A stretch of DNA of 64,000 nucleotides from Nostoc sp. 'Lobaria pulmonaria (5183) cyanobiont' (GTDB lineage: Bacteria; Cyanobacteriota; Cyanobacteriia; Cyanobacteriales; Nostocaceae), in the NCBI RefSeq assembly GCF_002949795.1, contig NZ_CP026692.1, forward strand, positions 4,324,545 through 4,388,544. Direction: 5' to 3'. The position numbers and the translations under genes were made by a program. Below, piece after piece: positions 7,765 to 63,107 of the stretch. The stretch's first letter is position 1. Every line of letters starts with the position of its first letter. The notes beneath the pieces were generated by a model, which saw nothing but the letters and a program-made list of their open reading frames with translations, was not told the origin of the DNA and made no database searches.

Positions 7765-7859
7765 GTCCAAATAACAAATAAAAAATGACTCATAGACTGA
7801 GTCATAAACTAATGACTAAAATCGCTATCCTAGAAGGAAAGCAGGACGATATTTAAAAA

Positions 7860-8881: not shown

Positions 8882-8914
8882 TAATTGATGTCTGGAAGGC
8901 AACAAAAAAACATT

Positions 8915-9005: not shown

Positions 9006-9137
9006 GAACATAATTTTTCCCTGTCCAGAAAGGTCTGGCACTCACAGACATTAGCTAAAATCACTAAGACAACCACCAAAAATAGAATTTGGTTGGTCTA
9101 TTGTTGAATAAGTATGCTAATGAGGTAGGAAAGATTG

Positions 9138-45751: not shown

Positions 45752-46636
45752 TTAAATCTCAAGGCTTAATTGCAAAGCTGGATTAGCAAGATTCTGAACT
45801 TGTAATTTTTTTTCCAAATAAAGTTTAACTTCGTAGTTAGTAATGAATAACTCTTTTCCTTTAGCCGCACCACTCTGCTTATAGTTATTCATCCCATACT
45901 GTAATTCCCACTCTGAAATATTAGCCCATTGAAAATTTTCTCGAATTTGCTGTGAGTTGTCGTAGGTAATTAACCAGCGATGATGACATTGTTGCAAAAT
46001 TTGAGCAAATCTATGATCTTCAAAAGAGGTGTGCAAATCACCATCTTTACCATATAGCTTTGATTTTTTAGCGCTAAAATATGGTGGATCTAAAAACAAA
46101 AATACATCTTCTCCTTCTGGTTTTAATAGATGGCTGTAATCTAAATTAGTAATTTGGACGTTTTTTGATAAGATATTTTCTAACTTTTCAAGTCGTTCTA
46201 TTGAAGAATCAGTAAATCTTTTATGAAAAGCTTCTTGGGAAAAACCACCTGATTCTACAGTTCCAGAAAAAGTAATTCTATTCAGTACGAAAAAGCGAAT
46301 GGCTCTTTCTAGATCAGATAAATTATTGACATCTATACTAGTCAATTCTGAAAACAATAATTTCCCATCTGTATACTTTACTTTAATATATCGAATTTCT
46401 TTAACTAACTGAACTAGATCAGATTGGGCAAACTTCCAGAATAAGAAGAGTTCGCGGTTTAAATCGTTAATCCAAATTTTTAGATCGGGAAACTTTTGTC
46501 TTAAATAAATGAATACAGAACCACCACCCACAAAAGGTTCTCGAAATTCCGAAAAGCTCTCTGGCAAGTATTCAACTATTTCATTTATTGCTTTTGACTT
46601 ACCACCAGGATATCGTAGAGGGCTTTTGATAATCAT
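45752..46636 (-). CDS. D12-class DNA adenine-N6 methyltransferase (Dam-like)
   Basis: 294 residues. Methyltransferase of the Dam/D12 class: substrate/SAM motif LRYPGGKSKAINEIVEYL at the N-terminus, SAM motif I EPFVGGGSVFIYL and the catalytic DPPY in LFLDPPYFSAKKSK. It methylates adenine at N6, probably GATC-like but the site cannot be read from sequence. Third gene of a tight cassette: it starts 12 bp after the DUF5131 gene. No cognate restriction enzyme is obvious. Codon use is AT-richer than the flanking trpD. Confidence 0.9.
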   Translation of the reverse strand: MIIKSPLRYPGGKSKAINEIVEYLPESFSEFREPFVGGGSVFIYLRQKFPDLKIWINDLNRELFLFWKFAQSDLVQLVKEIRYIKVKYTDGKLLFSELTSIDVNNLSDLERAIRFFVLNRITFSGTVESGGFSQEAFHKRFTDSSIERLEKLENILSKNVQITNLDYSHLLKPEGEDVFLFLDPPYFSAKKSKLYGKDGDLHTSFEDHRFAQILQQCHHRWLITYDNSQQIRENFQWANISEWELQYGMNNYKQSGAAKGKELFITNYEVKLYLEKKLQVQNLANPALQLSLEI

Positions 46637-46648
46637 TTACGGACACAT

Positions 46649-47398
46649 TTATTTTAAAACTGATACTTGTTTAGTGCTTGTATCAGCTACATTTTCTGGA
46701 AAACTATCCCAAGTTCTTCCATCAAGTTCTCTGCCATATTTTTTCTTTTGAACGCCTCCCCATTGTTTAAAGAAAAATGGCACATTAGCTTGGATACACT
46801 GCTCTCTAATATCTCTTACCCATTCAATGTTCATAGGACGAGCACCTACACCAGATTCTCCACCAACAATAATCCAATGTAGATCATCTAAACACAGCGT
46901 TAAAGAACCTAAAAGAGGCTCACAAGATAAAAATCTAGTTTTTGCAGGAATCTCTTTTAAAATTTCACTTCTCCATAGCCAAGCTTGAGATTCAATACTT
47001 ACTCCAGCCCAAACATTAGGAGGCCACTCTTTTATGCAGTTAGCTATTTTAAGCATCCTTTGTGGACGTTTAGTTAATACCTGAAACTGATGCCAACTAG
47101 CTTCTTTCATAACATGAAAGACATCCTTAATAAATTCTTCTGAAATATCATCAAGGAATAAATCACTCATAGAATTAACAAAAATTAGCCGAGGTTTTTT
47201 CCATGAAAGAGGCATTCTTAGTCTTTCATTCCAAGTTTTTACATCAAAACCTTGTTCGTAGGGATGACCAGCAACACCTCGCCACCGTTCTGCAAAACGT
47301 TCTGCATAACAATTGTGACAACCAGGACTAATTTTATGACAGCCAGTGGTAGGATTCCATGTAGCTTCTGTCCATTCTATTGTTGAAGATACTGACAT
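46649..47398 (-). CDS. DUF5131 (phage Gp37/Gp68) three-Cys protein
   Basis: 249 residues of the Gp37/Gp68 family. Cys20, Cys27 and Cys30 form a C-x6-C-x2-C cluster (TTGCHKISPGCHNCYAE), which gives the three-Cys name and recalls Fe-S or radical-SAM sites without matching C-x3-C-x2-C. Further conserved blocks are FVNSMSDLFLDD, VLTKRPQRM, WAGVSIESQ, FLSCEPLLG and WIIVGGESGVGARPM. Biochemical role unknown. It lies between the TcmP gene (42 bp upstream) and the Dam gene (12 bp downstream), on the same strand. Confidence 0.88.
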   Translation of the reverse strand: MSVSSTIEWTEATWNPTTGCHKISPGCHNCYAERFAERWRGVAGHPYEQGFDVKTWNERLRMPLSWKKPRLIFVNSMSDLFLDDISEEFIKDVFHVMKEASWHQFQVLTKRPQRMLKIANCIKEWPPNVWAGVSIESQAWLWRSEILKEIPAKTRFLSCEPLLGSLTLCLDDLHWIIVGGESGVGARPMNIEWVRDIREQCIQANVPFFFKQWGGVQKKKYGRELDGRTWDSFPENVADTSTKQVSVLK

Positions 47399-47440
47399 AG
47401 AATTTTACTTTTCAATTAAACTAGCTTTACTATATTAGTA

Positions 47441-48736
47441 TTATTGTACTGCTCTGACGTAATTATCCAAAGTTAAATTACCTTTTGCGCCCAATTCTTT
47501 AGCTTCTATGATATTTTTTTTATGAAACTCCAGTAAAATTTCTCTATACTTAGGTCTACTTAAATAACCTAGTTTACCAATTTTAAGAATAATAAGACTT
47601 ATTAAGTCTTTCAAAGTTATCCAATCTTGATTATTCCTTCGTAAAATTTCAATAATTTCAGGTCTAATTATTTCAACTCGCTCATCATTTTCGCGCTTCC
47701 ATGATTGAGTCATAAATTTATGATTTTTTCCAGTTTTGTCATCTTCAAAGAAAAGTAACCTATTTTCTTCACAAAAAAATTCGTTTAAAAATTCACCAAA
47801 AGCTTTCCTTGGATGGTTGCTACCAACTACAATATTGTACTGCGGTCTAGAATCATTGTATGTCTCCTTTATTTCAAAACTAGCCACTCCTTTAAAACTA
47901 CTTTCTTTTTGAAGCCTAGACTTAAAGTAATCAAGCGCCCACCTTTCAAATTTTTGTTTTTGCTCTTGATCTTGGCATTCTAGCCACTTGCGTTTCCAGT
48001 CTAAATCAGAATTATGACCTAATAAGTTAGTTAAATTTTGTGTATATGTTTCGGCAGTTTTCTGATCTTTGTAATTTTTATAGCTTGTTTTATATAAACC
48101 TGCATGACGGGCTACTGCGCGGTTATGAAACAGTAAAAATAATTCTCCTTTATATTTACTGACGTAATCGGCAATAGAACATATTTGCTCAAAAGTTACT
48201 CCCTTAACTCCAAAGGCATCTAGAAAAAATAACGTTGGGTATTTGTCCAATTCATTCATGATTTGAGTCAACGCTTTGTCAAATCTTTGAGGGTCATAAA
48301 CTTTATAGGACAATCCTTCACCTATTAAATTACAATTACTCTTAAGTTCTTGGTTAAGGTCTTTATCTTCCTCAGTAAAAAAACATCTTAAAGTAACACG
48401 TTCTTCAAGACCGAATATCTTAGCACATTTAAGAGCTATCAAAGGCGAACCGTCAGTATCCAAAAGTTCAGTGTTATATCTCTGCCAAAACTTCGATTGA
48501 TCTACAAAGTTTTCAATACCAATACCTTCATCATATTTGCCTGCTCCTGCAAAACCATCAACATAGTTAATATACATAGATTGATAGGATTTGCTGCCGC
48601 CCAAATTATAGCAATGAGCCTGTATATATTTCAGCATTATCCTATGTTTTGCTGCTGACCAGGGTCTTTTACGAGCAAAAAATTTATTTAAATCTTCTGG
48701 TTGCTGATCAAATAGAGATAATTGTTTTACTGACAT
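47441..48736 (-). CDS. tcmP: Three-Cys-motif partner protein TcmP
   Basis: 431 residues. TcmP proteins are defined by co-occurrence with three-Cys (Gp37/Gp68) proteins, which here are encoded directly downstream. The N-terminal half is class-I-methyltransferase-like: YVDGFAGAGKYDEG (motif I, residues 58-71), GSPLIALKCAKIFG, and LFFLDAFGVKG (motif IV position). The rest is helical with a C-terminal winged-helix-like segment. AAGG 7 nt before the ATG serves as binding site. An IS lies 33 bp upstream of the start codon, so its promoter is probably displaced. Function unknown. Confidence 0.87.
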   Translation of the reverse strand: MSVKQLSLFDQQPEDLNKFFARKRPWSAAKHRIMLKYIQAHCYNLGGSKSYQSMYINYVDGFAGAGKYDEGIGIENFVDQSKFWQRYNTELLDTDGSPLIALKCAKIFGLEERVTLRCFFTEEDKDLNQELKSNCNLIGEGLSYKVYDPQRFDKALTQIMNELDKYPTLFFLDAFGVKGVTFEQICSIADYVSKYKGELFLLFHNRAVARHAGLYKTSYKNYKDQKTAETYTQNLTNLLGHNSDLDWKRKWLECQDQEQKQKFERWALDYFKSRLQKESSFKGVASFEIKETYNDSRPQYNIVVGSNHPRKAFGEFLNEFFCEENRLLFFEDDKTGKNHKFMTQSWKRENDERVEIIRPEIIEILRRNNQDWITLKDLISLIILKIGKLGYLSRPKYREILLEFHKKNIIEAKELGAKGNLTLDNYVRAVQ

Positions 48737-49007: not shown

Positions 49008-50123
49008 ATGGAAACCATTCTTGCCCACGCCCATACCCTAATGTATACGATTCTGGCATTGATGCCTAGCCGTTATCAATGAGACAACTTGGAAGCAATG
49101 TTAGGGCTGTTTCTAGCAGCAGACGGAAAACCTTTGCCACACTACAGTAAATCCAAATCTGAAAGTGCTTTAAGTAGATTTTTGAATACCTATAAATGGC
49201 CTACTCGCAAGCTAATTCGCCATCTTCGCCAACAGGCAATTGAGCAAGTTAACAGTCATTGTCCATTGGGAAGAAAAGCGTTTCTACAAGTAATAATTGA
49301 CCTGACAACTTTAGAGAAATGTGGTCAATTTAAAGCATTTAAAAATCTAATAACCGTTTACAACGGGAAACGAGGCTTGCATATAGTAGTTTTATATTTG
49401 GTAGTTGGACAATGGCGTATACCCTGGAATTTTCGTGTCTGGAGAGGTAAAGGGACGGCTAGTCCGTCTCAAATAGCATTACGAATGGTACGTCATTTAC
49501 CCAAAGATTTAACCAAACGATTTCGGGTAAAAATTCTCGCTGATACTGCTTTTGGTACTAAGGATTTTATCAACAATCTTCGGAAACTAAAATATCATGC
49601 TGTTATTGGTATTGGTTGTAATCGCAAGTTGGTTAATGGTTATCCAGTTAAACTTCTACATCGTCGAGGACAACAAGTCCGACTTGTTGGATTAGATTTC
49701 CCTGTTACTCTTTCTTGGTATTACTTCAAACGCGATAATGGTCAGTTTGTTAAAAGATATGTTATCTCTACACAACCTCTTAAAGCCAGTACTATTTCCT
49801 GGTGGGGTAAACGCCGTTGGAAAATTGAAGGTTGGTTTAAAACTGCTAAATATCGCTTTGGTTTAGATAGATTTGGACAAGGTACTCTTTTAGGAATTTA
49901 TCGTTGGTTAGTCTTGTCTATTACTGCCTATTTATTAGCATATTGGACGTATCTTTCATCCTGTTTCCCTGATTCTTTAGACTGGGGTCAAGCTGCTTTC
50001 CTTGCACTATCTACTTTTTTACCTCATTTAGTCTTGTCTTTATTGCTACTAGACATTGAACGGCTTCGGCCCTTAGCACTTAGTCATGGAATTGACATTA
50101 CTATTTCCAGGTGCAAGATATGA
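49008..50123 (+). pseudogene. IS4/IS701-type DDE transposase with in-frame TGA
   Basis: From ATG 49008 the protein begins METILAHAHTLMYTILAL and would be about 371 residues, but codon 25 is TGA (49080-49082) where PSRYQ-stop-DNLEAM suggests an original TGG (Trp). Catalytic residues remain: Asp in VIIDLTTLEKCGQF, Asp in ILADTAFGTKDF and Glu in RRWKIEGWFKTAKYRFGL. A shorter protein could start at an ATG near 49095 and lacks only the N-terminus, so residual function cannot be excluded. The final RCKI-stop is read from the right inverted repeat. Confidence 0.85.
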
Positions 50124-50651: not shown

Positions 50652-51743
50652 CTACCTTGATGAACGAAATATTACACGACCTGGAGATTCTTCTTGATTA
50701 ATTCGCGCATATACTCGAAGACAAGTTAAGACTTCGCCAGGAATACCACCACAGTCTAGTTGTAAGTCATCCTTGGATAAAGCACAGATATCTGCATAAA
50801 GTCCCGATAATTGACGAATTCGCACTTCATTACCTGCATTAATAGCTTCATCAGCGATTTTCTTCAGGATACGCCGTGATTCATGTTGTAGCTTTCCCCA
50901 CCAAGAATAGCGTTCAGCAGGTGGTACAAAGATTAGGGAATGTATTGCTTCGTCCATGTCAATCCAGGCACGCAGAATTGACAGAGTATCAGTATTTTTC
51001 TCAGCTTTTTGAATGCGTTGGAAGCGATCGCTTAAAGCATCAATATATTGATCGCGCTGTTCTGGTTTGGAGTGTAAGGAAATAACATCGAAGCTAAAAA
51101 CGCTCTTTAAAGCATGATGTAAATCTGGGTCTATTTCGATAAAATTCATATATAAAAATAGGAATGCCGCTGGTAAATCAGATGCATTCCCTTGAGTAAC
51201 TAAATGATTTGAAAGTGGTTGTTGATACAAGCTCAATCCTTGAGTTTGAACAGTACCACTAAGACCGGGGTAGATAATTTCATTACGAATAAAGGGAAGC
51301 TGAAAGAGGTTAGAATGATCTGCGATCGCACCAACCTCTTGAGCTAAATCTAAGGTGCGCGATCGCCAAGTTGCAGCTAAATCCTCTGGTACCCGTAGCA
51401 GTTTACGTTGAATTTCATTCCATAAATCTGAGTCTGTTTGGCTTTGCAGTTGGGAATTACCCAGATAATAACTGAGTTCTGAGTCAGAATCGAAAGCTTC
51501 TCGGAGGTGACTTAGTTTTAACTCATCTAGCGCATCTTCCCAACCAGTATTTTGCTGTGGCGGTGTAGGTTGCAACAGGCTATGAAGTTCTTGCAGCACC
51601 TGATCGCATATTTTAGATCCTGGATCTAGTGGTAATTCTGTGCGAGCCTGATTTAAAGTAGCCTTTATTCCATACAAACTAAACCGCAGTAATTGGGCTA
51701 ACTCTGAGTTTTCTATCTCTAATAATTGACGCAAGTGCTGCAT
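50652..51743 (-). CDS. Helical protein, partner of the Hsp70-like/dynamin-like set
   Basis: 363 residues of unknown family. The protein looks all-alpha and soluble, with heptad-like helices (QHLRQLLEIENSELAQLLRF, LHSLLQPTPPQQNTGWED) and no signal peptide. Conserved-looking blocks are SELSYYLGNSQLQ, NEIIYPGLSGTVQ and WWGKLQHESRRILKKIADEA. It lies 129 bp after the 991-residue Hsp70-like gene on the same strand. Start: ATG 51743 is preferred over a TTG five codons upstream. No catalytic motif is evident; an adaptor role is a guess from context. Confidence 0.65.
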   Translation of the reverse strand: MQHLRQLLEIENSELAQLLRFSLYGIKATLNQARTELPLDPGSKICDQVLQELHSLLQPTPPQQNTGWEDALDELKLSHLREAFDSDSELSYYLGNSQLQSQTDSDLWNEIQRKLLRVPEDLAATWRSRTLDLAQEVGAIADHSNLFQLPFIRNEIIYPGLSGTVQTQGLSLYQQPLSNHLVTQGNASDLPAAFLFLYMNFIEIDPDLHHALKSVFSFDVISLHSKPEQRDQYIDALSDRFQRIQKAEKNTDTLSILRAWIDMDEAIHSLIFVPPAERYSWWGKLQHESRRILKKIADEAINAGNEVRIRQLSGLYADICALSKDDLQLDCGGIPGEVLTCLRVYARINQEESPGRVIFRSSR

Positions 51744-51872
51744 GAATATCACTTCCAAATATTACCTGTATGTGATTCGTAGCAAATTAAGCTTGGCAAA
51801 CCTCTGCGCCACTTTTTGTTTAAAAATATTAATTTTTTCAACGCAGAGAAACGCAAAGGTTTAATGCAAGAG

Positions 51873-54848
51873 TTAATGTATGCCGCAAAAGGGATCACGT
51901 TCTTTATCAACTTCATTAGGTTGCAACTCTAATTCAGCACGATAAACGCATCCTTCTTGCATCAAGCATTCTTGATTTTGTGATGTCCAGTAAGGCACTT
52001 CGCCAGCGTGCATCCTTAGAATACCTCGATCGTCGAGAGTTACACGATATTGGCAAGGGTAATCTGTGGTTACATCTGGTTTACTGAGTGCGCCAATTCG
52101 TATCCATTTTTTGCTGTTGGTTTCAGCATCTGTTTGATAAACATAGAAAGTGTGCTGTCCAGTTTGCGGAAAGGGAGGTAAAGGATTACTAATTAAGCCA
52201 ATTCCTGGTTGCGTCACCCCATCGCGTAAATAGTGAAATTTATGAAACGTTTTACTACCATCATTTCCGACTTCAAATACAAGATGATAGGCATCTGGTT
52301 GATCGACAGTTGCTGACTCAATAACATTAACGGCAATATCACCATCATTTAAATCTTTATTGAAGCCTTCTACAGCAATATTCCAGTTTAATTGACCATC
52401 AGCAAATAGCGCTGAAGTTTCTGAAACTACCGATTCTAAATCGATACCAGAAATATCAATCAAATAATGGGGATTTCCTTGACAAAGCAATACGTTAAAT
52501 TCGAGGGTTTGGTCAATCTCAAACTGGACTTTGATTTTTTTCAGAAATTCTACTTCTGGTATTTCCAGTTGATTCATCAGGTTTTTACCGTCAAAGCTTC
52601 CCCAAAGTCGTAAATCTCCTTCTTCGTAATCCTGACGGTAGATAATATTAGTCAATTGTATGCCTTGCCAGTGAGTACGAACTTTAGCAACAGTTTCCCC
52701 AGGTGCGAGTTGATAGAGTTCTTGTCCAGCTTTGAATATAGTTAGTAAATCGTTGCTTTGGGTTTTGCGTTTGAAGTTGCAGGGTAAATAATAAAACAGG
52801 TTTTTAACATCAATTTCTAGCTGGTTGGCTCCCTTACGCAGCAAGCTTTTAGACTCTTCTGGATCGAATCTCAATCTTCGTAGCTTTTCGGCATAGCAAG
52901 CACCGGCGGAGGTGGCTAGCTTGGTAAATTCCAACACAAAGGTAATCCGTTCTGGATTCCAGACAAAATATGGAGACTTACTAAATTCTTGATAAATTTG
53001 GCGCTGCACTATGTCTAAATTACAAGTTTTACCAGACAAAATTAACCAATCAACTTTTTGGGAATTCCAAGAATCTTTGGTGAGATCATCGCGACGCAAA
53101 CGACTTTCCATTAATCCTTTGGCAATCCCGATCGCTTCTTTAATTCCCGAAGCGGCGGCTCGTTCAAATTGCTGGTTATCTAAGGTGACGCAGATGTTAT
53201 TTGGATCTTTGACTTGCAATTTAATGGCGCTTTGGGTGAGCAATTCGGAAATTTGCTGCTCAGAAAGTGTGAAGGTTAATAGAGAATTATCTGCTGTTGA
53301 CTTTTGCCCCAGTTTAAGTTTAGCTGCTTCTGCATGTTCCCAGAGAATATAAAAAGATTGCAGACGTTGAGGTGCTTGTTGCCAACGAGTCGGCAATACT
53401 TTCTCGGCAGTATCTAGGGCATCTTTGTAAGCAATATCGCCTTCTGGATTCTCTCTATCCAGACATTTTAAAAGACTGCCAGTTTTAAATTTGCCTTGTT
53501 CTAAAAAGCGCTCGTTTAATTCTGAGTTAATTAAATCTTCTAGCTTTTCGTTTTCTAGATCGCCGATTGTTACTGCTGTCAACAAAAAGTCTGCGATCGC
53601 AACTTTTAATAATCTCAATATTCGCAGTGTAATTAACTCCCCGCCTAACTGTAAATGACCAGATGAACCTAAGAGTTTGGGGGTAAGTTTATAATAACGT
53701 CCTCCTAAACCACGTTCTTCATAATCAGCAAAAGCTGGGGTTTTGTCTTCCAAAGTCAGTTCAATTAAAGCTAAGTCTGTGGTTCCGCCGCCAATATCCA
53801 AGACGAGGACATTTTGTGACCATTTGTTTCCTACTTGGCGACAACGGGTTTTGAATGACTCAATCCCAATGTTGAGATTACCGCCAAATTCTCGCCATAA
53901 AAAGAATATTGCCACAGAAACGGCTTCATCATAAGCAGTTTGCACATCATCGATTCCTAACTGCTCAACCAATTCTCTAACTTCCTTGCGAACAACTGGT
54001 GGGGCGACTGTTGGGTAGGTGACAACTGCTGTTAAAAAATCTCCTTCAGAAAACCTGCGTCGTGCGTGTTGGCGGTAGTCTTCAGTTAACTCGATTAAAT
54101 GCGCCCAAGCAGATTGGATCAGTTGGTTGGCGGTAATTGTTTCTTCTTCGCCATCCAAAATAATAGAAAACGATCGCTCCTGACCAAAATAGCGTTTAGG
54201 TGAATGGTGAAACCTGCTGATAATTTCCTTTAAAGAACCGCTTGTACCTTGAGCGATCGCTTTTTTTCTGTTATCTCTAGCTTCCCTTCCCATCCGCAGT
54301 TTTAAATCCCCTAAGTGGGAAATTTCCGACTCGCTGGGAATTTCCGTATCGCGGCGATCGATATCCAGCACAACTGGGATCAGATTTTGCGACTCTAGGG
54401 TAGGGACGCGGAACACCTCATGATAAATTTGGTAAAGTTTTTTGCTGACAGCCCGGCGGAATCTCTCGCTGTTTCCTAAAGAAAGTTCAATTTGGCGAAT
54501 TGCTTCTAAAAATCGCTCTTTATTATCACTTTCAAATACTTCACTCAATCTTCTTGGTTCTATCTCCAGATTTTTGCTAATTTCTACGATGAACTTTTCC
54601 CAATCATCAGCGCTGACATCTGGTAAAGCGACTGAGGCGGGAGAACTTAACCATTGTGATAAGCGATCGCGCAACCGCATTTCTTGTTCTTTGGGTAAAA
54701 TTTCTGCGATCGGTACTTCAATTGGATCGAAGAGTGTAACTGTAGAGTTCGACGTGCCAAAATCTAAAGCAAACCATCCCGGAAATCTTTTTTGTTGTTT
54801 CTCACTTGGTTCTCGATCGCTATATTTGTTGAGTTGAAAAGGGTTCAT
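51873..54848 (-). CDS. Large Hsp70/actin-fold ATPase
   Basis: 991 residues, 350 more than DnaK. Phosphate-1 loop LDFGTSNSTVTLF (residues 29-41), phosphate-2 loop VLVLDIGGGTTDLALI (about 348-363), adenosine motif LILSGKTCNLDI (about 602-613). The nucleotide-binding core is interrupted by large insertions (about 50-200 and 370-560) and the C-terminal 300 residues are beta-rich without a DnaK substrate-binding domain. The layout recalls SrfB-type proteins, but sequence relation was not tested. It is in line with a dynamin-like GTPase gene and a helical protein gene. Confidence 0.85.
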   Translation of the reverse strand: MNPFQLNKYSDREPSEKQQKRFPGWFALDFGTSNSTVTLFDPIEVPIAEILPKEQEMRLRDRLSQWLSSPASVALPDVSADDWEKFIVEISKNLEIEPRRLSEVFESDNKERFLEAIRQIELSLGNSERFRRAVSKKLYQIYHEVFRVPTLESQNLIPVVLDIDRRDTEIPSESEISHLGDLKLRMGREARDNRKKAIAQGTSGSLKEIISRFHHSPKRYFGQERSFSIILDGEEETITANQLIQSAWAHLIELTEDYRQHARRRFSEGDFLTAVVTYPTVAPPVVRKEVRELVEQLGIDDVQTAYDEAVSVAIFFLWREFGGNLNIGIESFKTRCRQVGNKWSQNVLVLDIGGGTTDLALIELTLEDKTPAFADYEERGLGGRYYKLTPKLLGSSGHLQLGGELITLRILRLLKVAIADFLLTAVTIGDLENEKLEDLINSELNERFLEQGKFKTGSLLKCLDRENPEGDIAYKDALDTAEKVLPTRWQQAPQRLQSFYILWEHAEAAKLKLGQKSTADNSLLTFTLSEQQISELLTQSAIKLQVKDPNNICVTLDNQQFERAAASGIKEAIGIAKGLMESRLRRDDLTKDSWNSQKVDWLILSGKTCNLDIVQRQIYQEFSKSPYFVWNPERITFVLEFTKLATSAGACYAEKLRRLRFDPEESKSLLRKGANQLEIDVKNLFYYLPCNFKRKTQSNDLLTIFKAGQELYQLAPGETVAKVRTHWQGIQLTNIIYRQDYEEGDLRLWGSFDGKNLMNQLEIPEVEFLKKIKVQFEIDQTLEFNVLLCQGNPHYLIDISGIDLESVVSETSALFADGQLNWNIAVEGFNKDLNDGDIAVNVIESATVDQPDAYHLVFEVGNDGSKTFHKFHYLRDGVTQPGIGLISNPLPPFPQTGQHTFYVYQTDAETNSKKWIRIGALSKPDVTTDYPCQYRVTLDDRGILRMHAGEVPYWTSQNQECLMQEGCVYRAELELQPNEVDKERDPFCGIH

Positions 54849-55090
54849 TATAGTATCACTTTCTATTGTTTGTCTTACAGCTGGCTAAAAACTGTAATGT
54901 TGTATCATAAAATTACAAATTTAGAGAATCCTTGTGGTAAAGACTTTTCATCTTTGGTCTTGTACCACTGATTCTCTTTAGCACTAGCTTTTTTATTTGG
55001 TGCGATATCTACGGCTGGCTATACCTACGCTTTTATATAGAAAGGACGTAGGTATAGCCCAAACTAGGCATCGCTATGAAAATTACGGTA
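54849..55090. other. Spacer upstream of the Hsp70-like gene with 13-bp inverted repeat
   Basis: No gene. GGCTATACCTACG (55017-55029) pairs perfectly with CGTAGGTATAGCC (55047-55059) over 17 nt. It could be a repeat element or regulatory hairpin in the leader of the Hsp70-like gene. Confidence 0.6.
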
Positions 55091-55390
55091 GTTATTGAGT
55101 TGATGTTAAAGATTCTTGCTCAGTTGCAAGTCTTACTTGTTCGACTTGTTTGATAGTTAAATCAAGTTACTGGGCAACCTCTTCTATAGAAATACCATAA
55201 GCTAAGAATCAAGGTATAAGTTCAAGTTTTGCTTGTTCTCGTCCTTTTTCTCGTATTTCTTCTAGTGCTTGTTTTAGTCCTTCTTCTTTAGCTTCTTGAT
55301 AAACCCTAGTTTCTTGTAACTTAATTTCAAACATCGCCTCTACCTCTTCACTATTTAAGTTTGCAAATTTATAATCAGTAATTGTTGTGA
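55091..55390 (-). pseudogene. Decayed duplicate of the Rpn nuclease C-terminus
   Basis: Read on the minus strand, this segment repeats about 100 C-terminal residues of the intact gene immediately upstream: TDYKFANLNSEEVEAMFEIK, LQETRVYQEAKEEGLKQALE, KLELIP-stop-FLAYGISIEEVA, then another stop and LDLTIKQVEQVRLA. Two in-frame stops and a changed repeat linker show decay. It follows directly after the stop of the intact gene, so a partial tandem duplication is the simplest origin. Confidence 0.85.
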
Positions 55391-56227
55391 TTACTCAGCT
55401 GCAAGCCTTATTTGTTCTATGGTTAAATTAAGTAATTGGGCAACATCTCCCATCGACATACCACTAGCTAATAACTGAGGTACAAGTTCAAGTTTTGCTA
55501 GTTCTCGTCCTTGTTGTAGTCCTTGCTGTAGCCCTTGTTGTAGCCCTTGTTGTAGTCCTAGTTCTAATCCCTCTTGTTTAGCTTCTTGATAAACCCTAGT
55601 TTCTTCTAACTTAACTCCTAACATTGCCTCTACCTCTTCACGACTTAAGTTTGCAAATTTATAAACTGCGATTGTTGTGATTACATCTATTATCTCCTTC
55701 TTAGCCAAGACAGTTATCTGTTCTAGTTGCACCCGCTCAATTAAACGTTTCGCTTCTTGAACCATTTGAGTCTCTGAGGCAATAGTCAACTGCATCAAAC
55801 TGATACCTACTTTTTGCTCATCAGGACTACCTAACTCATCTAAATAAATCCGTTGTACTTGGGAACTATTCAGTAACGATCTATGAATAGTGGTGTTTTC
55901 TGGTTCCAAGCTGCGAGATTGTAAAATAATTACCCCGTACCAGTCATCGTAAAGCAACGGATTACGATACATATACAGCATGGATTCGGAGAAAAAGCGA
56001 TGGTACAGTAACTCATCTCTTTGGAATTGTACCTCAGCAAAAAAGATCGTCTGAGATGTTGCATCCGGTGGAGGTAAAAATACCCCATCAATCCGAAATG
56101 TTGGTTCTTTAACTTCAACTGATTCAAAGCGATAACTAGCAGCTTCTGTTGGTGGCTGTTCTACTAACTCGAAAAACAATCCTGGGACACGCTTGAAAAT
56201 TGTATAAAAAATCGCATCACGTCTCAC
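55391..56227 (-). CDS. Rpn/DUF2887-type PD-(D/E)XK nuclease
   Basis: 278 residues. The N-terminal half is a PD-(D/E)XK domain of the recombination-promoting nuclease/transposase-like group: start RRDAIFYTIFKRVPGLFFEL, catalytic Asp in FRIDGVFLPP and FFAEVQFQRDE (E-x-Q variant). The C-terminal part has KFANLSREEVEAMLGVKLEE, four GLQQ repeats (about 225-242) and a terminal MSMGDVAQLLNLTIEQIR segment. It starts at GTG. It sits between the GTPase and the Hsp70-like genes, as if inserted into that set. Such genes spread horizontally; its role here is unknown. Confidence 0.82.
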   Translation of the reverse strand: MRRDAIFYTIFKRVPGLFFELVEQPPTEAASYRFESVEVKEPTFRIDGVFLPPPDATSQTIFFAEVQFQRDELLYHRFFSESMLYMYRNPLLYDDWYGVIILQSRSLEPENTTIHRSLLNSSQVQRIYLDELGSPDEQKVGISLMQLTIASETQMVQEAKRLIERVQLEQITVLAKKEIIDVITTIAVYKFANLSREEVEAMLGVKLEETRVYQEAKQEGLELGLQQGLQQGLQQGLQQGRELAKLELVPQLLASGMSMGDVAQLLNLTIEQIRLAAE

Positions 56228-56258
56228 AAATACATCCTCATATCTCTACGCGATCGCG

Positions 56259-58808
56259 TCATCTCAAATCAAAATCATCTGAGTGAGAAACTGCGGCGAT
56301 TTCTGAAATAATTTGCAACCAAGTAGGAATTTGGATCTCAGATGGCAATTCTCCAGCTGCCAAATATCTTAGCAACGTTTCTTTTTTTGAAAGGTTTTGC
56401 AGACTAGGAATAATTTGATCCAAAATGCCTTTTAGTTCGGAATTAATTTGCTGATTAACTTCACTAACATACTGCACAAGATGGAGACTGGCGCTAGCAG
56501 TAATTTCATCTCGCAGTCGCAGTACTAAAAGTTGGTGATTAGTCGATCTGGGTAAGCCTTGGCTTTTCTCTGGTGCCCAATCAAATATTTGACCAACGTT
56601 GTGTTTTTCGTCTTGACGTGCTAAAGGAAAAATAATTTCAGGTGCAACAGTTTTGTCTTTACTAGTAATTTCCGAGATAATTGCTTCTTTCCATTCGTTA
56701 GGGTCGCATCCTAATAATAATTTGTAAAATAGATCGGCATCTTCAAAACCAAATTTTTCTTCGATTTCTTGTTCCATTTCTGGGTGGAAAAATGCCTGCA
56801 ATTGTTCGCGTTCTGGGGCGATATAATTTGATAATTGGTTCAATAAATCTACTACTGCTTGCTGAATGCGATCGCGGGCAAAATCTTCTACTTCTTTAAC
56901 GGTTTTCTCAAATACTGGATAAAAATCATCACTCTTAGTTGGAAGGGAAGTATTTACGCGGTTTCCTCGATCGAATAATTTTCCAGCTGCACCTTTAGAT
57001 TCTGCCAGAGCGATCGCTCCATTATTGGCTTTGTTGAAGAGTAAAGTCCACTGGTTCCAATTAAGGATTCTAAAGGTGAGTTCGTCTTTAACTACATCGC
57101 TGACAACAACACCGCGTCGGTCTTTGAGTGGTTCTTTCCCGATATCTTTTTGAAAATTTCTGTAGATTTTATCTAAGCTTTCGACCACAAAACGCAATTC
57201 GATAAAAGCGGGACTATCGCCTGTGGGGATACCTTGCTCGTGAATTTCATCTATAATGTCTTTTAAGTGATCTTGTTGCTGACTCACCACATCAGCAGCT
57301 CTTTTGGTATCTTCATGCAGTTGCTTCAAACCATGAGTAGCTACGTGAGTTTGAATCACTTCCCGCAGCTTACTAAGTCCCCCATCTTGAACAAAGTAAC
57401 CCAACTGTCTGCCCAAATAGCTACGGGTATCAGATTCTAGCAGATGTTTACTTAATAGCTCCCATTTATCTTGTAGCCGTTTAGACCGATCTAGGTAATC
57501 AGGATAGTCTAAGTTAGCCAAAAACTCTGGTGAACCGGCTTTCACGCTACTAGAACGTTTTGCTAATTCAGCCAATCCCAACAGTGGCGACAGTAAAACG
57601 ATGCGGTCTTTTTGGGTTGTAAACGCTTGTGCACCATCAATGGTAGTTTGCAGAACTTTGAGTTTTTGAAGAACCGTTTCTTCCTGCAAATATGAGCTAT
57701 CTTCAATCAATTGGTCAAGTTCTCTTTCGCCACCCTCGCTATCTAGAGGTAGTTGATCGAAACGACCCACACCGACGAGAATTAAATCTTTCAGGTCTTG
57801 TCCCGGTCGCTGCTGCTGCATCATGGTGAAGATTTTATTGGCGCGATCGCTTCCAGGAGATTTACCATTTAGCAATACCAAAATTGTCTGTACTTCTGCC
57901 AATTCTTGCAGTGACAAAAAGGTATCTCTAGCCCCCGAATTAGCAGCCCCCAATCCCGGAAAGTCGATGAGAATAAATTTAGCTGCATCTGCAAAATCCC
58001 AAATTTCCCGTGAGATTTTTACATCGATATCTACGCGGCGGATCAGTGGGAAACTGTTTTGCAATAACTTTGTTGGTAGCCGCTGGGGTGGACTTGGTAA
58101 TCGGATATGCGCTGGAGGTAAATCCTCAAATTTCAGAGTTTGGATTGCCATTGGCTGTTCGACTAGCTGTAATCCCTCACGAGCGGTGGTAGCATCAATC
58201 TGGTAGTGCCCACCACACATAACTTCCCCATAAGCTTGATAAGCCCGTAGGAATAGTACCAACTCCCTCAGTAAATAACGTAGCTCTAAATTGTTACTGC
58301 TATTCCATGCTTCTTCACACCAGCTAATAATATCTGTGCCAGAATTGAGTTTCGATACTGGTATAGGAGGAAGCCCTGCTGCTGTTGTTCGTTTATTGGC
58401 TTCCCCCAGCATGAAGCGTAGACACTCATGTACTCCTTCATGAGAAAGATAATTGACCGTAAAATTACTTAACTGAGTAGTTACAAACTCGTTTTGTGGG
58501 AGAATATGTATGGCGGTAACATTACCTGTAGTGGGGTTTTCACTGACTGGCAAAGCATCTGCATATCCAATTAGACTGCCTAAAAGTAAGGTTTTTCCAC
58601 TACTAAATTCCCCCATTACACCAATTTTGACAGGCGAAGTTGCCAGGTCTACAGTTTTCTGGGCAGCCGAGCGCAAACGAAGAAGACAGTCATCAAGACT
58701 AGCTGGAACCCAATCTTCTTGTTTAGAAGGGTAGTGGGGCACAGAATCTATCTTTCGGAGGATGAATTCGCCGTACTCCTTAAAACGGCCCAGTTTATCT
58801 GGTTCCAT
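56259..58808 (-). CDS. Large dynamin-like GTPase
   Basis: 849 residues. P-loop VMGEFSSGKTLLLGSL (G66-T73), switch-I Thr region NPTTGNVTAIHI, G3 LIDFPGLGAANSG and a G4-position VGVGRFDQLP in place of the usual N/TKxD. The remainder is predicted helical and would form stalk and assembly domains. Dynamin-like proteins remodel membranes, and some act in phage defence. Start: ATG 58808 (MEPDKLGRFK) has GGCGGA 10 nt upstream; ATG 58829 is an alternative. It heads the set with the Hsp70-like ATPase and the helical protein. Confidence 0.85.
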   Translation of the reverse strand: MEPDKLGRFKEYGEFILRKIDSVPHYPSKQEDWVPASLDDCLLRLRSAAQKTVDLATSPVKIGVMGEFSSGKTLLLGSLIGYADALPVSENPTTGNVTAIHILPQNEFVTTQLSNFTVNYLSHEGVHECLRFMLGEANKRTTAAGLPPIPVSKLNSGTDIISWCEEAWNSSNNLELRYLLRELVLFLRAYQAYGEVMCGGHYQIDATTAREGLQLVEQPMAIQTLKFEDLPPAHIRLPSPPQRLPTKLLQNSFPLIRRVDIDVKISREIWDFADAAKFILIDFPGLGAANSGARDTFLSLQELAEVQTILVLLNGKSPGSDRANKIFTMMQQQRPGQDLKDLILVGVGRFDQLPLDSEGGERELDQLIEDSSYLQEETVLQKLKVLQTTIDGAQAFTTQKDRIVLLSPLLGLAELAKRSSSVKAGSPEFLANLDYPDYLDRSKRLQDKWELLSKHLLESDTRSYLGRQLGYFVQDGGLSKLREVIQTHVATHGLKQLHEDTKRAADVVSQQQDHLKDIIDEIHEQGIPTGDSPAFIELRFVVESLDKIYRNFQKDIGKEPLKDRRGVVVSDVVKDELTFRILNWNQWTLLFNKANNGAIALAESKGAAGKLFDRGNRVNTSLPTKSDDFYPVFEKTVKEVEDFARDRIQQAVVDLLNQLSNYIAPEREQLQAFFHPEMEQEIEEKFGFEDADLFYKLLLGCDPNEWKEAIISEITSKDKTVAPEIIFPLARQDEKHNVGQIFDWAPEKSQGLPRSTNHQLLVLRLRDEITASASLHLVQYVSEVNQQINSELKGILDQIIPSLQNLSKKETLLRYLAAGELPSEIQIPTWLQIISEIAAVSHSDDFDLR

Positions 58809-59723
58809 AAAGTAGTTTCCGCCTAACATTAATTTCTGTGAGCTTTATAACATATAAAATGCGATTATCAGCCATTGTTGCAACGTGTTGATATCACATT
58901 TAGCATTTCTCTCATTTAATTTGCGATTTTGTTATTGCAATCCTAAATCATTGGTGAGATTTGTTCTCTTTTTGGCGTACTTTTATATGAGATGCTGCGC
59001 GTACACTTAGTATCTCCTATAGAAGACAGTTCGTCATCACCTAGATTTCTCATAACTCAGATAGGATTATTGCTATATAAGGCATTTTGACTAGTCAAGA
59101 CAATTTGAATAAATTGGGTTTTGTTGGAAACAATAAAAAAGAATACATCCATCATCATCCAGGATTAAAAATAAATAAAGTTGGCTTTTATACCACTAAT
59201 TGGTTGGAAACTGCTTAATACAGATGTGGCGCTCAAACTCTTTTATACCCCTGATTTTAAGCAAGTTAGATCCATCAGCCAGATTCTAATTCATGCTGAA
59301 TTCTTCTTGATAAAAAATCAATATTTATTTGGGATGAAAATCTTGATTATTGTGAATTTATGATAAAGATGTAAACGCCTTGTAGAGAATCATATAGTTT
59401 ACGTAAACCTAAATCAGGTTTTTAAGGAATGCAATTACATAGCTAAAATGAATTTCTCAGTGATTCCAAAAAGAAACAAAGTCAAACAAGATGACTGATA
59501 TCTAGATAGTTTAAATTTCACAAAAAATGTTGGAGTTAATCTTAATGATAACTTCAGCATTTTTTCAATTTATTTACACTAAAAGAGGAATTGCTGCATA
59601 TATAAAAATAAATAAAGTATTAAGATCGTTAGCAGGTTGGCATAAACAAGATTATATCCATGTATTAAGAATTATATTTTCAGCAAGTTACTTTTATAAT
59701 TTAGGCAGAGCAGGCAGGCAAAA
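58809..59723. other. AT-rich intergenic region with one small hairpin repeat
   Basis: 915 bp between the divergent GTPase and kinase genes. A 13-mer GAGATGCTGCGCG at 58989-59001 also occurs in the kinase gene at 62802-62814; here it starts an 8-bp stem with AGTATCTC. Short frames at 59181-59363 and 59527-59766 are AT-rich, lack family features and are not called. Confidence 0.5.
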
Positions 59724-62700
59724 GTGTTTTCTAAAAAGGTGCATAGCTACGTTAACCAAATCATAGTTGAAGAGGAAGAAATACAACAGGATGAAAAAGT
59801 ATTTTGTCAGCAGGCGGATATTGCTCCTCTGATGATTTGGATGTCTGGATACAATGCACTTTACTGTTACTTCAATTCTAATTGGCTGAAATTTACTGGA
59901 ACACACTTAACAACAGCCGCATCTGCATCTGCACAAGAAGAGGAAATAGGCAATATTTGGACTAGCAGCGTCCATCCAGAAGATAGACAGCGAGGCGAAG
60001 ATATATACCTAAGAGCATTTGCGACGCATGATTCCTTCCAGAGACAATATCGCCTGCGTCGAGCTGATGGTGAATATCGCTGGATTTTAGATACAGCCGC
60101 GCCACGATTTGCAGCAGATGGTAGCTTTGTCGGTTACATCGGTTATTGTATCGATCTAACAGAAGTGCCGATAGAGATAAGTCAACCTTCCCTAACAGAA
60201 AGCTGTTCGCCATCGATAAATTCCTCTCCTCGCTTACGTAAAATTACAGGTAGAGAGCGGGCAACAGAATTAGCAAAAGCATTAGAGCAACTGCAAGCTG
60301 AAATTACCAAACGCCAAGCAGTTGAAGCACAGTTACGCCAAAAAACATCAGAATTTGCAACGATTTTGCAAGTGCTTCCTGATTTGTACTTTCGTCTTGA
60401 TGTTGATGGAAGTATTCTGGATTACAATCCAGGGAAGATGCCGAGTCTGGATATTCTACCAGGAGATTGTCAGGGCAAGAGTTTACGAGAATGCTTACCG
60501 ACTGCTGTAGGCGATCGCTTCCATCAAGCAATAAATCAAGTACTTGAAATTCAATATGAAGTCAGTTTTGAATATACCTTACCGATCTTAGAAAAAAATA
60601 ATAATTTTGAAGCTAGATTATTACCATTACCAGACCAGCAAATCATAGTTCTGATCCGCGACACCAGCGACAACATCCAAGCAGCCTTAATAGAAAGTGA
60701 TGCCAAGTTTCGCAGCATTGTAGAAAATGCCAACAACGTTATTTTTTCGCTAACACTTGAAGGGATATTTTCCTACATTTCTCCTAACTGGACTGAGATT
60801 TTTGGGCATGAGGTTGCAGAGGTTGAAGGCAAATCCTTTATTCCCTTTATACATCCTGATGATGTGCATATCTGTGCCGATTATTTCCAAAGAATTTTGA
60901 CAACAGGCAAGAAACAAGAGGCAATTGAATATCGAGTCAAACACAAAAATGGTAGTTGGCGATGGCATACAAGCAACTCATCTGCGATTAAAGACGCTAA
61001 TGGCAATGTTTTATACTTCGTTGGTATTTGCTATGACACCACTGACCGTAAAGAAGCAGAAGTCGCTCTAGCAGAACGAGCGCGTTTAGCAAATTTTCGT
61101 GCCGATGTAGACGCGGCGTTGACCCAGAGTGACAGCTTACAGAACATGATGCGCCGCTGCACTGAGGCTTTAGTTGAACATATTGATGCAGCTTTTGCTC
61201 GCATCTGGACGCTGAACAAACAAGACAACGTATTGGAATTGCAAGTCAGTTCTGGGATGTACACCCATATCAATGGGCCCCATAAATCTGTGCCAGTCGG
61301 TCAATTCAAAATTGGTTTGATTGCCGAAGAAGGCAAACCCCATTTAACTAATTCTGTGCAGACAGATCCCCGCGTTGGTAACAAAGAGTGGGCACAGCGA
61401 GAGGGTATGGTCGCCTTCGCGGGCTATCCCTTAATTGTTGAAGATGAAACTGTAGGGGTGATAGCCATGTTTGCCCGCCAAACACTGACAGAATCAGCTT
61501 TCACAGCATTGGAATTTGCTGCCCAAGAGATTGCCATTGGCATCAAGCGCAAACAAGCAGAAATTGCACTCAGAGAAAGTGTTCAGCGAGAAGCACTACT
61601 CAATCGTCTTTCTAATCAGATTCGAGCTTCTTTGGATCTCAATCACATTGTGGAAACCGCAGTGCAGGAGATTCATAACTTATTCCAGATCGATCGCTGT
61701 GTCTTCTTTTGGTATCGGCAAGACGCTGATGTACCCTACTGGGAAAAAGTATATGAAACGAAAAGTTCCTTTTTACCCTGTCTGCTTAATCAACAAGAAG
61801 TAACTAATGGAGAAATCGAACTAATCGCAGCCAAAACCTTAAACGGAGAAATCATCCGCATTGATGATCCTGAGACTGTAGACGATTCCATAGCCCGGCA
61901 GTTTTTGCAGGATTTTGGTTTCACTGCCTTTATGTCGCTGCCTGTACACACCCAATCTGGCGAAATTGGTGCATTTAGCTGTGGTTATTGTAGTGGCTTT
62001 CGTCCTTGGCTGAACAACGAAGTAGAGTTACTACAAGCAGTTACAGTTCAACTAGCGATCGCTATTGACCAAGCTAAACTTTACACCCAAAGTCGCATCA
62101 CTGCCCAAACTGCCCAAGACAAAGCCCAGCAACTAGAAGCAGCACTGCTAGAACTTCAACAAACCCAAGCGCAACTGATTCAAACTGAAAAAATGTCCAG
62201 TTTAGGACAATTAGTTGCAGGTATTGCCCACGAAATCAATAATCCCGTTAATTTCATCTACGGCAACATTAGCCACGCCCGTGAATATACTAAGGATTTG
62301 CTGCACTTAGTAGAACTTTATCAACAAAACTACTACCCACCAATACCTGAGATTGATCAACAAATCAATACCATTGATTTAGACTTTCTCAAGCAAGATT
62401 TACCCAAAATCCTGGAGTCTATGAAGATGGGAGCCGAACGCATTCGCCAGATTGTCCTATCTTTACGCAATTTTTCTCGCCTTGATGAAGACGGTACAAA
62501 GGCAGTGGATATTCATGAAGGTATGGATAGCACTTTGCTGCTATTGCAAAATCGCCTAAAAGCCAAACCAGGACATCCTGAAATCCAAGTAATCCGAGAC
62601 TACGGCGACCTACCACCAGTAGTCTGTGACGCTGGACAGATGAATCAAGTGTTTATGAATCTATTGACAAATGCGATCGATGTCTTGGAAGAGTCATTTG

Positions 62701-63107
62701 TCAATAGTCATTTGTCATTAGTAAACAAAACTGAACAAAGGACAAATGACCAACAGAGAAGTCTGAGCGGAGGCTTCCGGCGATCAGAACTTCTCCCAAA
62801 GGAGATGCTGCGCGAACAAAGACAAATGACTTTTCCACAAATTCGCATTCGCAGCCTCATTCAAGAAGACCATGTAATCATTAGAATTGCTGACAATGGC
62901 CCAGGCATGAGTGAGGAAGTACGCAAACGCTTATTTGACCCTTTCTTCACGACAAAACCTGTGGGTAAAGGCACGGGTATGGGATTATCAATTAGCTACC
63001 AAATTATAGTCCAAAAACACGGTGGAAAAATCCAGTGTATTTCAGAACCAGGAGAAGGTGCCGAGTTTGTTGTGATGATTCCACTAAAGCAAAAACCCTC
63101 AAAGTAG
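59724..63107 (+). CDS. Multi-domain PAS-GAF sensor histidine kinase
   Basis: 1127 residues from GTG 59724. Domains in order: PAS (about 25-150, with IGYCIDLTEV at its end), coiled coil (about 170-205), PAS (205-320), PAS/PAC (325-450, SLTLEGIFSYISPNWTEIFG), two GAF (about 455-620 and 630-790), coiled coil, HisKA with His836 (LVAGIAHEINNPVNFI) and HATPase with N-box VFMNLLTNAIDVLEE, G1 IADNGPGMSEE and G2 GKGTGMGLSIS. No membrane helix is seen, so cytoplasmic. Residues about 993-1036 between N-box and G1 are encoded by inserted repeat DNA. Ligand unknown. Confidence 0.92.
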   Translation: MFSKKVHSYVNQIIVEEEEIQQDEKVFCQQADIAPLMIWMSGYNALYCYFNSNWLKFTGTHLTTAASASAQEEEIGNIWTSSVHPEDRQRGEDIYLRAFATHDSFQRQYRLRRADGEYRWILDTAAPRFAADGSFVGYIGYCIDLTEVPIEISQPSLTESCSPSINSSPRLRKITGRERATELAKALEQLQAEITKRQAVEAQLRQKTSEFATILQVLPDLYFRLDVDGSILDYNPGKMPSLDILPGDCQGKSLRECLPTAVGDRFHQAINQVLEIQYEVSFEYTLPILEKNNNFEARLLPLPDQQIIVLIRDTSDNIQAALIESDAKFRSIVENANNVIFSLTLEGIFSYISPNWTEIFGHEVAEVEGKSFIPFIHPDDVHICADYFQRILTTGKKQEAIEYRVKHKNGSWRWHTSNSSAIKDANGNVLYFVGICYDTTDRKEAEVALAERARLANFRADVDAALTQSDSLQNMMRRCTEALVEHIDAAFARIWTLNKQDNVLELQVSSGMYTHINGPHKSVPVGQFKIGLIAEEGKPHLTNSVQTDPRVGNKEWAQREGMVAFAGYPLIVEDETVGVIAMFARQTLTESAFTALEFAAQEIAIGIKRKQAEIALRESVQREALLNRLSNQIRASLDLNHIVETAVQEIHNLFQIDRCVFFWYRQDADVPYWEKVYETKSSFLPCLLNQQEVTNGEIELIAAKTLNGEIIRIDDPETVDDSIARQFLQDFGFTAFMSLPVHTQSGEIGAFSCGYCSGFRPWLNNEVELLQAVTVQLAIAIDQAKLYTQSRITAQTAQDKAQQLEAALLELQQTQAQLIQTEKMSSLGQLVAGIAHEINNPVNFIYGNISHAREYTKDLLHLVELYQQNYYPPIPEIDQQINTIDLDFLKQDLPKILESMKMGAERIRQIVLSLRNFSRLDEDGTKAVDIHEGMDSTLLLLQNRLKAKPGHPEIQVIRDYGDLPPVVCDAGQMNQVFMNLLTNAIDVLEESFVNSHLSLVNKTEQRTNDQQRSLSGGFRRSELLPKEMLREQRQMTFPQIRIRSLIQEDHVIIRIADNGPGMSEEVRKRLFDPFFTTKPVGKGTGMGLSISYQIIVQKHGGKIQCISEPGEGAEFVVMIPLKQKPSK
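62700..62830. repeat. Composite repeat inserted in the kinase ATPase domain
   Basis: Three parts: STRR-like AGTCATTTGTCATTAGT with its inverse GGACAAATGACC; then a palindromic repeat (62756-62795, from GAGAAGTCTGAGCGGAGG to CAGAACTTCTC) related to 2565-2605; then GGAGATGCTGCGCGAAC (62801-62817), followed by ACAAATGAC. The whole adds about 44 codons in frame. Confidence 0.8.

What the first reader, a model, noticed from the sequence alone, without database searches (positions are those of the whole stretch)
50652..58808. Candidate undescribed system: dynamin-like GTPase, 991-aa Hsp70/actin-fold ATPase and helical partner
Seen: three large minus-strand genes encode a GTPase with P-loop and DFPG switch, an ATPase with the three Hsp70/actin loops but no DnaK substrate domain, and an all-helical 363-aa protein. 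Known: dynamin-like proteins remodel membranes and some bacterial ones act against phage. Srf-type operons pair an about 990-aa Hsp70-like protein (SrfB) with a GTPase-like protein (SrfC) and a smaller SrfA; the sizes here (363, 991, 849) match that layout. Inference: the set forms one nucleotide-driven complex working on membranes or envelope attack. No characterised cyanobacterial counterpart comes to mind.
Basis: partly seen in the sequence, partly recalled or inferred. Interest (0 to 1): 0.8.

Follow-up and report, generated by a model that had tools for sequence, protein, structure and literature searches.

The report
Nostoc-clade dynamin and Hsp70-like operon
Three neighbouring genes, for a dynamin-like GTPase, a large Hsp70-like ATPase and a partner of unknown fold, are kept together in one family of filamentous nitrogen-fixing cyanobacteria and were found in no other cyanobacteria examined, so they probably form one unstudied cellular machine that may serve cell specialisation.

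Summary
Three minus-strand genes are confirmed: C, dynamin-like GTPase (56259-58808); B, SrfB/Hsp70-like ATPase (51873-54848); A, unknown fold (50652-51743). They are one unit: all occur in the same 42 of 386 cyanobacterial genomes, all of the window's family, with no match in the other 344; in one member all three are broken, at two loci. Order C-B-A holds in 77 of 80 named loci; the Rpn gene between C and B is a passenger (28 of 80). Family-wide presence and purifying selection speak against a mobile defence or toxin system. B is a remote SrfB relative below the curated cut-off; C is dynamin-like, not demonstrably SrfC; A is unlike SrfA. The unit very probably equals alr1146-alr1148 of Nostoc PCC 7120, printed as heterocyst-specific genes of unknown function that rise 9.1/2.5/8.7-fold 12 h after nitrogen step-down; not checked by sequence. 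Best reading: an NTP-driven membrane-remodelling or assembly complex of differentiating filaments; mechanism inferred, both structure models too poor to use. B orthologues in 34 of 80 loci carry an extra N-terminal domain that the window lacks.

The parts
56259..58808 (-). C: dynamin-like GTPase, 849 aa (mechanical ORF reaches 58829, 856 aa); P-loop GEFSSGKT, NPTTG, DFPG, GRFD
   Evidence: consensus start MEPEKL
51873..54848 (-). B: SrfB/Hsp70-like (ASKHA) ATPase, 991 aa; lacks the N-terminal domain found in 34 of 80 orthologous loci
50652..51743 (-). A: mostly helical protein of unknown family, 363 aa, C-terminal tail PGRVIFRSSR largely conserved
58831..58858 (-). Conserved promoter-like element upstream of C, extended -10-like; only copy in the genome at up to 3 mismatches
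   Evidence: core motif within 2 mismatches in 61 of 75 orthologous upstream regions against 43 of 1980 random stretches; genome scan; alignment
55391..56227 (-). Rpn-family gene (DUF2887) inserted between C and B: passenger, not part of the unit
   Evidence: between C and B in 28 of 80 loci, near full length in 19

Best explanation
C, B and A are the parts of one NTP-driven machine that arose in, or was acquired by, the ancestor of the heterocyst-forming cyanobacteria and is used in filament differentiation under nitrogen deprivation. Most likely C, a dynamin-like GTPase without a transmembrane-like stretch, assembles on an internal or cell membrane and remodels or scaffolds it (heterocyst thylakoid rearrangement and narrowing of the cell poles are candidate sites). 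B, a SrfB-like Hsp70-fold ATPase without a recognisable DnaK substrate domain, would use its ATP cycle to load, clamp or take apart C. A would be the adaptor that couples B to C or to the site. Shown here: the families of C and B, co-occurrence, joint decay, synteny, purifying selection. Taken from print, through an identity that I infer: induction by nitrogen step-down. Inferred only: physical complex, membrane as substrate, division of labour.
For: Same 42 of 386 genomes for B, C and A, repeated for B and A with profiles at looser limits; all 42 carry the window's family label and the other 344 have no match. By the coordinates, C and B lie within 2 kb of each other in 42 of 42; A lies within 2 kb of B in 39 and elsewhere in the genome in 3 (G051, G172, G332). 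G332 has all three genes broken, at two places over 1 Mb apart, though it has an uninterrupted nifH and a HetR match, as joint loss of one function predicts. No other sense-strand neighbour is found in more than 46 of 88 loci. dN/dS 0.05-0.25. Dynamin_N in 31 of 31 C members; SrfB in 29 of 29 B members. [quoted passage not shown] PMC2823733 Table 4d (passages): alr1146 is a Nostocales-specific protein of 847 aa, the only one over 447 aa in that table; C is 847 aa in L054. Thylakoids are extensively remodelled in heterocyst differentiation (PMC11500504, start of abstract in a listing).
Against: Identity with alr1146-1148 rests on length, order, strand letter and distribution, not on sequence. 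G332 keeps an uninterrupted nifH and a HetR match yet lost the unit, so the unit can be dispensed with. By the paper's table alr1147 was not found in one heterocyst former (Nos2) that keeps the other two. Presence across one family fits any trait of that family, not only heterocysts. NtcA-like sites were found upstream of C in only 5 of 26 loci and the TCCGGA motif in 1 of 26. No structure, complex or activity was shown: models of A and B have mean pLDDT 59 and 36.5. B, not C, has a stretch above the hydropathy threshold (around 405-413). Vertical inheritance is inferred from distribution; no tree was built.
Confidence: 0.45

Rival explanations
1. The trio is an assembly or chaperone system for filament cell-cell structures (septal junctions, septal peptidoglycan, polar neck) rather than a membrane-remodelling machine: B is the chaperone, C a GTP-driven scaffold, A the client adaptor.
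For: A known septal junction part, SepN (all4109), stands in the same published signature list as alr1146. B is Hsp70-like.
Confidence: 0.22
2. Anti-phage or other conflict system: C acts on membranes of infected cells (as proposed for some bacterial dynamins), B and A sense or regulate.
For: Weak LeoA-type match of C (E 6.5e-5) and a weak candidate-defence match of B (E 0.022) in PADLOC; the window also holds a TcmP/DUF5131/Dam cluster with candidate-defence matches.
Against: Present in 42 of 42 listed genomes of the family and in none of 344 others, low dN/dS, constant order; B not in phage records at E<=0.01, B and C not in viral contigs, B not on plasmids at E<=1e-5, C on plasmids only as a 5% partial hit at E 0.5. 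Defence systems are usually patchy (general knowledge).
Confidence: 0.13
3. A true cyanobacterial SrfABC system with the still unclear function of the proteobacterial one.
For: With a SrfB profile 4 of 4 B orthologues tested score 17-22 bits against at most 7.9 bits for 9 Hsp70-type controls; hhalign E 7.4e-9; similar sizes of B and SrfB.
Against: The match is confined to about 100 residues; the reverse profile ranks one non-Srf Hsp70-like protein above all SrfBs and two of six SrfBs among the low-scoring controls; C is not separable from other GTPases with a SrfC profile; A is unrelated to SrfA and to the protein after SrfC.
Confidence: 0.12
4. Three unrelated housekeeping genes that happen to be neighbours.
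For: Gaps between the annotated starts are often tens to hundreds of bases, so one transcript is not certain.
Against: Identical presence in 42 genomes and absence in 344, joint decay at two loci in G332, A kept where it is unlinked. Where B has its N-terminal extension the C-B gap shrinks, to 50 bases in L054.
Confidence: 0.03

Closest known systems
alr1146-alr1147-alr1148 of Nostoc/Anabaena sp. PCC 7120 (genes of unknown function, PMC4365693 Table 6; alr1146 also PMC2823733 Table 4d)
   Same: Three consecutive same-strand genes by their tags, first product 847 aa, restricted to heterocyst formers among cyanobacteria; very probably the same unit
   Different: Sequence identity not checked; in the parts I read the papers list the genes without domains and not as one system
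SrfABC operon (PF07520 SrfB, PF10139 Virul_Fac/SrfC, SrfA) of Proteobacteria
   Same: A ~1000-aa Hsp70-fold protein next to a 793-890-aa P-loop protein, with DFPG in 4 of 6 yardsticks, and a smaller third protein; B is a remote SrfB relative
   Different: Order C-B-A with gaps; third protein unrelated; C matches Dynamin_N, the Rahnella SrfC does not; B below the SrfB cut-off
Bacterial dynamin-like proteins (Nostoc BDLP1, SynDLP, LeoA)
   Same: C carries a Dynamin_N G domain with P-loop, NPTTG and DFPG
   Different: The profile of C finds no dynamin among solved structures at E<=1 and a single-sequence search finds no second match in its own genome at E<=1e-5 (2 of 6 candidates scored); constant partners B and A
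GTPase-centric conflict systems with HSP70 (Kaur et al. 2020, PMC7159879)
   Same: GTPase and HSP70-type genes in one neighbourhood; associated with multicellular bacteria
   Different: Described as mobile and nearly absent from cyanobacteria (passages read); this unit is a constant family-wide set

Membership tests
SrfABC operon | SrfB component reaching the PF07520 cut-off (27.1 bits) | tested here: not met
   Window B 23.3 bits; long form in L054 25.3 bits; all 29 members match at E<=0.01, best E 3.1e-6 (bits of the others not shown)
SrfABC operon | SrfC component (PF10139) | tested here: not met
   No PF10139 match at E<=1; Rahnella SrfC scores 565.8 bits; profile test does not separate C from other GTPases; hhalign only around the P-loop, E 3.1e-5, probability 73
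SrfABC operon | SrfA component | tested here: not met
   A against SrfA: probability 0.1, E 0.54
SrfABC operon | Gene order A-B-C, genes abutting | tested here: not met
   C-B-A with gaps against A-B-C abutting or overlapping
Dynamin-like proteins | Dynamin_N G domain above cut-off | tested here: met
   29.9 against 27 bits; 31 of 31 members match at E<=0.01
Dynamin-like proteins | GTP hydrolysis, membrane binding, oligomerisation | not testable with these tools
   -
Hsp70/actin (ASKHA) ATPases | Phosphate-1, phosphate-2 and adenosine loops in order | tested here: met
   29, 351, 603; the fold itself was not confirmed, the model failed
Hsp70 proper (PF00012, DnaK with substrate domain) | Pfam HSP70 above cut-off and substrate-binding domain | tested here: not met
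   No PF00012 match for window B at E<=1; genome search with PF00012 does not list it at 1e-5; 6 of 29 members match weakly
Known or candidate anti-phage systems (PADLOC) | Whole-protein match to a defence model | tested here: not met
   Only weak, partial matches for C and B, none for A
alr1146-alr1148 of Nostoc PCC 7120 | Same length, order, strand and distribution; same sequence | tested here: inconclusive
   Length (of C), order, strand letter and distribution agree; sequence not available here

The most novel reading that the evidence does not exclude
A dedicated dynamin/Hsp70-fold machine, unlike any described system in composition, arose with heterocyst-forming multicellularity and drives a membrane or septum rearrangement that makes a vegetative cell into a nitrogen-fixing cell; relatives of its two NTPases in mycelial Actinobacteria (Streptomyces aurantiacus, Frankia, per PMC4365693) would make it a shared tool of bacterial multicellular development.
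Probability: 0.3. Interest if true: 0.85.

Novelty: new variant of a known kind. Interest (0 to 1): 0.62.

Why it matters
Heterocyst differentiation is a classic model of bacterial multicellularity, yet the proteins that reshape heterocyst membranes and septa are largely unknown (general knowledge). A family-defining, co-inherited set of a dynamin-like GTPase, an Hsp70-fold ATPase and a partner would turn three entries in 'unknown function' lists into one testable machine, and the remote tie of B to SrfB gives a second handle on the unexplained Srf systems.

Tried and rejected
Structure: the AlphaFold models of A (pLDDT 59, pTM 0.32) and B (36.5, 0.26) are too poor; Foldseek of A in the PDB gave 36 matches at E<=10 and none at E<=0.001.

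Profiles against solved structures gave no significant match for B, C or A (best E 0.017, B to Hsp70).

Caballeronia L118 was first taken as a possible Srf relative; it holds a pair of HSP70-type proteins, one with DUF3731, and served as a control.

A neighbour survey found nothing conserved throughout beyond the trio. Checks for NtcA- and DIF-type motifs were mostly negative; the first motif scan was loose and is superseded.

An early dN/dS script stopped on a badly called ORF; the repeat compares the window with 7 close relatives of the genus Nostoc.

G332 could not be named; a small contig of it shares only a short stretch with Calothrix plasmids.

An earlier count said that 13 of 16 plasmid hits lie in SrfB genes, 11 annotated so; the recount is 11 annotated as SrfB, 1 unannotated in Rahnella, 4 others.
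Full report
OBSERVATION. The minus strand at 50652-58808 holds three long genes: A (363 aa from an ATG at 51743), B (991 aa) and C (849 aa from an ATG at 58808), read in the order C, B, A, with an Rpn-family gene (55391-56227; DUF2887, Rpn family) between C and B. C matches Dynamin_N above cut-off; B matches SrfB at E 1.9e-5, below cut-off; A has no significant match. Scanning whole alignments at E<=0.01, 31 of 31 C members match Dynamin_N, 29 of 29 B members match SrfB and 6 of 29 HSP70, 0 of 47 A members match any Pfam family.

ONE UNIT. A scan of named genome contigs with B found 167 relatives, of which the best 80 were kept; the records bear Nostocales-type names or are unnamed cyanobacterial bins. 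C, B and A stand in that order on one strand in 77 of 80; the exceptions are a 3.2-kb contig (L012), a contig that ends before C (L072) and one bin (L017) where A was not found within the 10 kb downstream. In 386 genomes drawn from the phylum, B, C and A each match in 42, the same 42, all with the family label of the window. The listings run by kinship and show no family member without a match before the other families begin, so I read this as 42 of 42 in the family and 0 of 344 outside (324 of the 344 are not listed one by one). Profile searches at looser limits gave the same 42 for B and A. A caveat: for B and C only the best two candidates per genome were scored, so far relatives may be missed. 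Calothrix sp. PCC 6303 (G091, by a 100% plasmid match) and Cylindrospermopsis curvispora (G231) are among the 42; these and the named genera are mostly heterocyst formers (general knowledge). Of the 42 I gave 21 to marker searches: HetR_C matched above cut-off in 21 of 21; the nifH model matched in 21 of 21 at E<=1e-20 but above its cut-off in 9, many of the others showing nifH in pieces.

JOINT DECAY. In G332 all three genes are in pieces: B lacks most of its middle, C lacks a middle stretch, A is split over frames; A lies over 1 Mb from C and B. Two separate places decayed in one genome, which is what loss of one shared function predicts. In G051 and G172 A is also unlinked but has an open frame. 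Two more family genomes have one gene split (B in G068, C in G019), from assembly error or young decay.

SELECTION AND CONTEXT. dN/dS of the window genes against seven Nostoc relatives is 0.054-0.099 (C), 0.054-0.129 (B), 0.139-0.248 (A). Among ORF families near the unit, B, C and A were found in 86, 84 and 83 of 88 loci; the best neighbour that is not an antisense ORF inside the trio reaches 46 (many loci are cut by contig ends). The Rpn gene is between C and B in 28 of 80 loci, near full length in 19, so it is a passenger. A core promoter-like motif before C (TGTTATAAAnCTCA, up to 2 mismatches) is present in 61 of 75 loci against 43 of 1980 random stretches; the full 28-base element occurs once in the genome at up to 3 mismatches, at 58831-58858.

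A HIDDEN DOMAIN. In 34 of 80 named loci, and in the three most diverged intact orthologues (L125-L127, 52-54% identical in B), the B frame runs on upstream by 60 codons or more, commonly 140-150, and encodes a conserved domain that typically begins MPVEI and holds VEYFDSD. The other 46 loci lack it by frame length, and tblastn with four such domains listed none of those 46 nor the window. No Pfam family matches it. In L054 the extension brings the B frame to 50 bases after C. The long form is probably ancestral, since the most diverged orthologues have it, and the window's clade lost it.

RELATION TO SRF. Yardsticks came from plasmids of environmental bacteria. A SrfB profile from 6 sequences gives 4 of 4 B orthologues tested 17.3-22.1 bits and 9 of 9 Hsp70-type controls at most 7.9 bits. 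hhalign aligns B and SrfB over 98 columns around the phosphate-2 loop (probability 95.8, E 7.4e-9). B keeps SPKRY in 29 of 29 members within a G-x-EA...SPKRY segment that 3 of 6 SrfBs share exactly; DnaK has a weaker counterpart there (recalled). Against this, the reverse profile (B) ranks a non-Srf Hsp70-like protein first and two SrfBs among the low-scoring controls, and a plain BLASTP aligns B to that same protein (E 7e-7 for the single pair). At a limit of E 10, 11 of the 16 plasmid records hit by B are annotated SrfB at the match, all in Rahnella and none significant (E 1-3). C and SrfC align only around the P-loop (E 3.1e-5), and a SrfC profile scores C orthologues 4.0-6.2 bits, no better than other GTPases of the same genome (up to 8.6). 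A is unrelated to SrfA and to the protein that follows SrfC. So B is a distant cousin of SrfB; the unit is not shown to be a Srf system.

PRINTED RECORD. PMC4365693 (section on heterocyst-specific proteins read in full) lists alr1146, alr1147 and alr1148 among genes of unknown function in clusters limited to heterocyst formers, with fold changes after nitrogen step-down of 9.1/5.3, 2.5/1.8 and 8.7/7.7 at 12/21 h (data of Flaherty et al. 2011, not read), homologues in the plants and bacteria it analysed only in Streptomyces aurantiacus (alr1146, alr1147) and Frankia sp. EUN1f (alr1147), and alr1147 missing from one heterocyst former (Nos2). PMC2823733 (passages) lists alr1146 as a Nostocales-specific protein of 847 aa. 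C is 842-861 aa in 76 of 77 ORFs called and 847 aa in L054. I put the identity of the trio with alr1146-alr1148 at about 90%, but no PCC 7120 sequence was at hand. A search for the three tags found only these two papers. Searches for SrfB/SrfC/Hsp70 (no paper), Hsp70/dynamin-like/SrfB, heterocyst/dynamin/SrfB/Hsp70-like and heterocyst/dynamin-like/Nostocales/Hsp70/GTPase/nitrogen step-down showed no study of such a system in the rows listed. Most subscription papers are not in that library.

MECHANISM. Shown: families, co-inheritance, joint decay, selection. From print, through an inferred identity: induction on nitrogen step-down. Inferred: a complex in which C does GTP-driven membrane work, B cycles its assembly with ATP, and A adapts. 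The site could be heterocyst membranes, the polar neck or the septum. A defence role is less likely because the unit is family-wide and single-copy. G332, with a HetR match and nifH but no working trio, shows that the unit can be dispensed with in at least one lineage.

VERDICT. A real, conserved, uncharacterised three-gene machine, found only in the window's family among the cyanobacteria examined; its genes are very probably listed in print one by one, but I found no account of the system or its anatomy.

Noticed in passing
L054:9593-12979 and 33 other loci; L125-L127: B orthologues in 34 of 80 loci carry an extra N-terminal domain (MPVEI...VEYFDSD) with no Pfam match; absent in the window.
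   Followed up: partly
window 55110-55390, minus strand: Between Rpn and B lies what reads by eye as a decayed second copy of the Rpn C-terminus, with internal stops (no tool run on it).
   Followed up: no
window 45752-48736, minus strand: Cluster of a TcmP-like protein, a DUF5131 protein and a Dam-type methyltransferase with candidate-defence matches; TcmP near the trio in 5 of 80 loci, Dam in 47 of 80.
   Followed up: partly
window 49089-50123, plus strand: IS701-like transposase beside the trio.
   Followed up: no
window 59724-63107, plus strand: Large sensor-kinase-like gene (by eye) divergent from C; near C with high identity mainly in close relatives.
   Followed up: no
family genomes, e.g. 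G091 (Calothrix sp. PCC 6303): nifH is split or interrupted in many of the 21 family genomes searched; in G091 the two halves lie about 190 kb apart, which may mean a large excision element.
   Followed up: no
L118 (Caballeronia plasmid) 4545-9193: Adjacent pair of HSP70-type proteins of 618 and 929 aa, the second with DUF3731.
   Followed up: no
[quoted passage not shown] in L119 a trypsin-like protease lies upstream.
   Followed up: no
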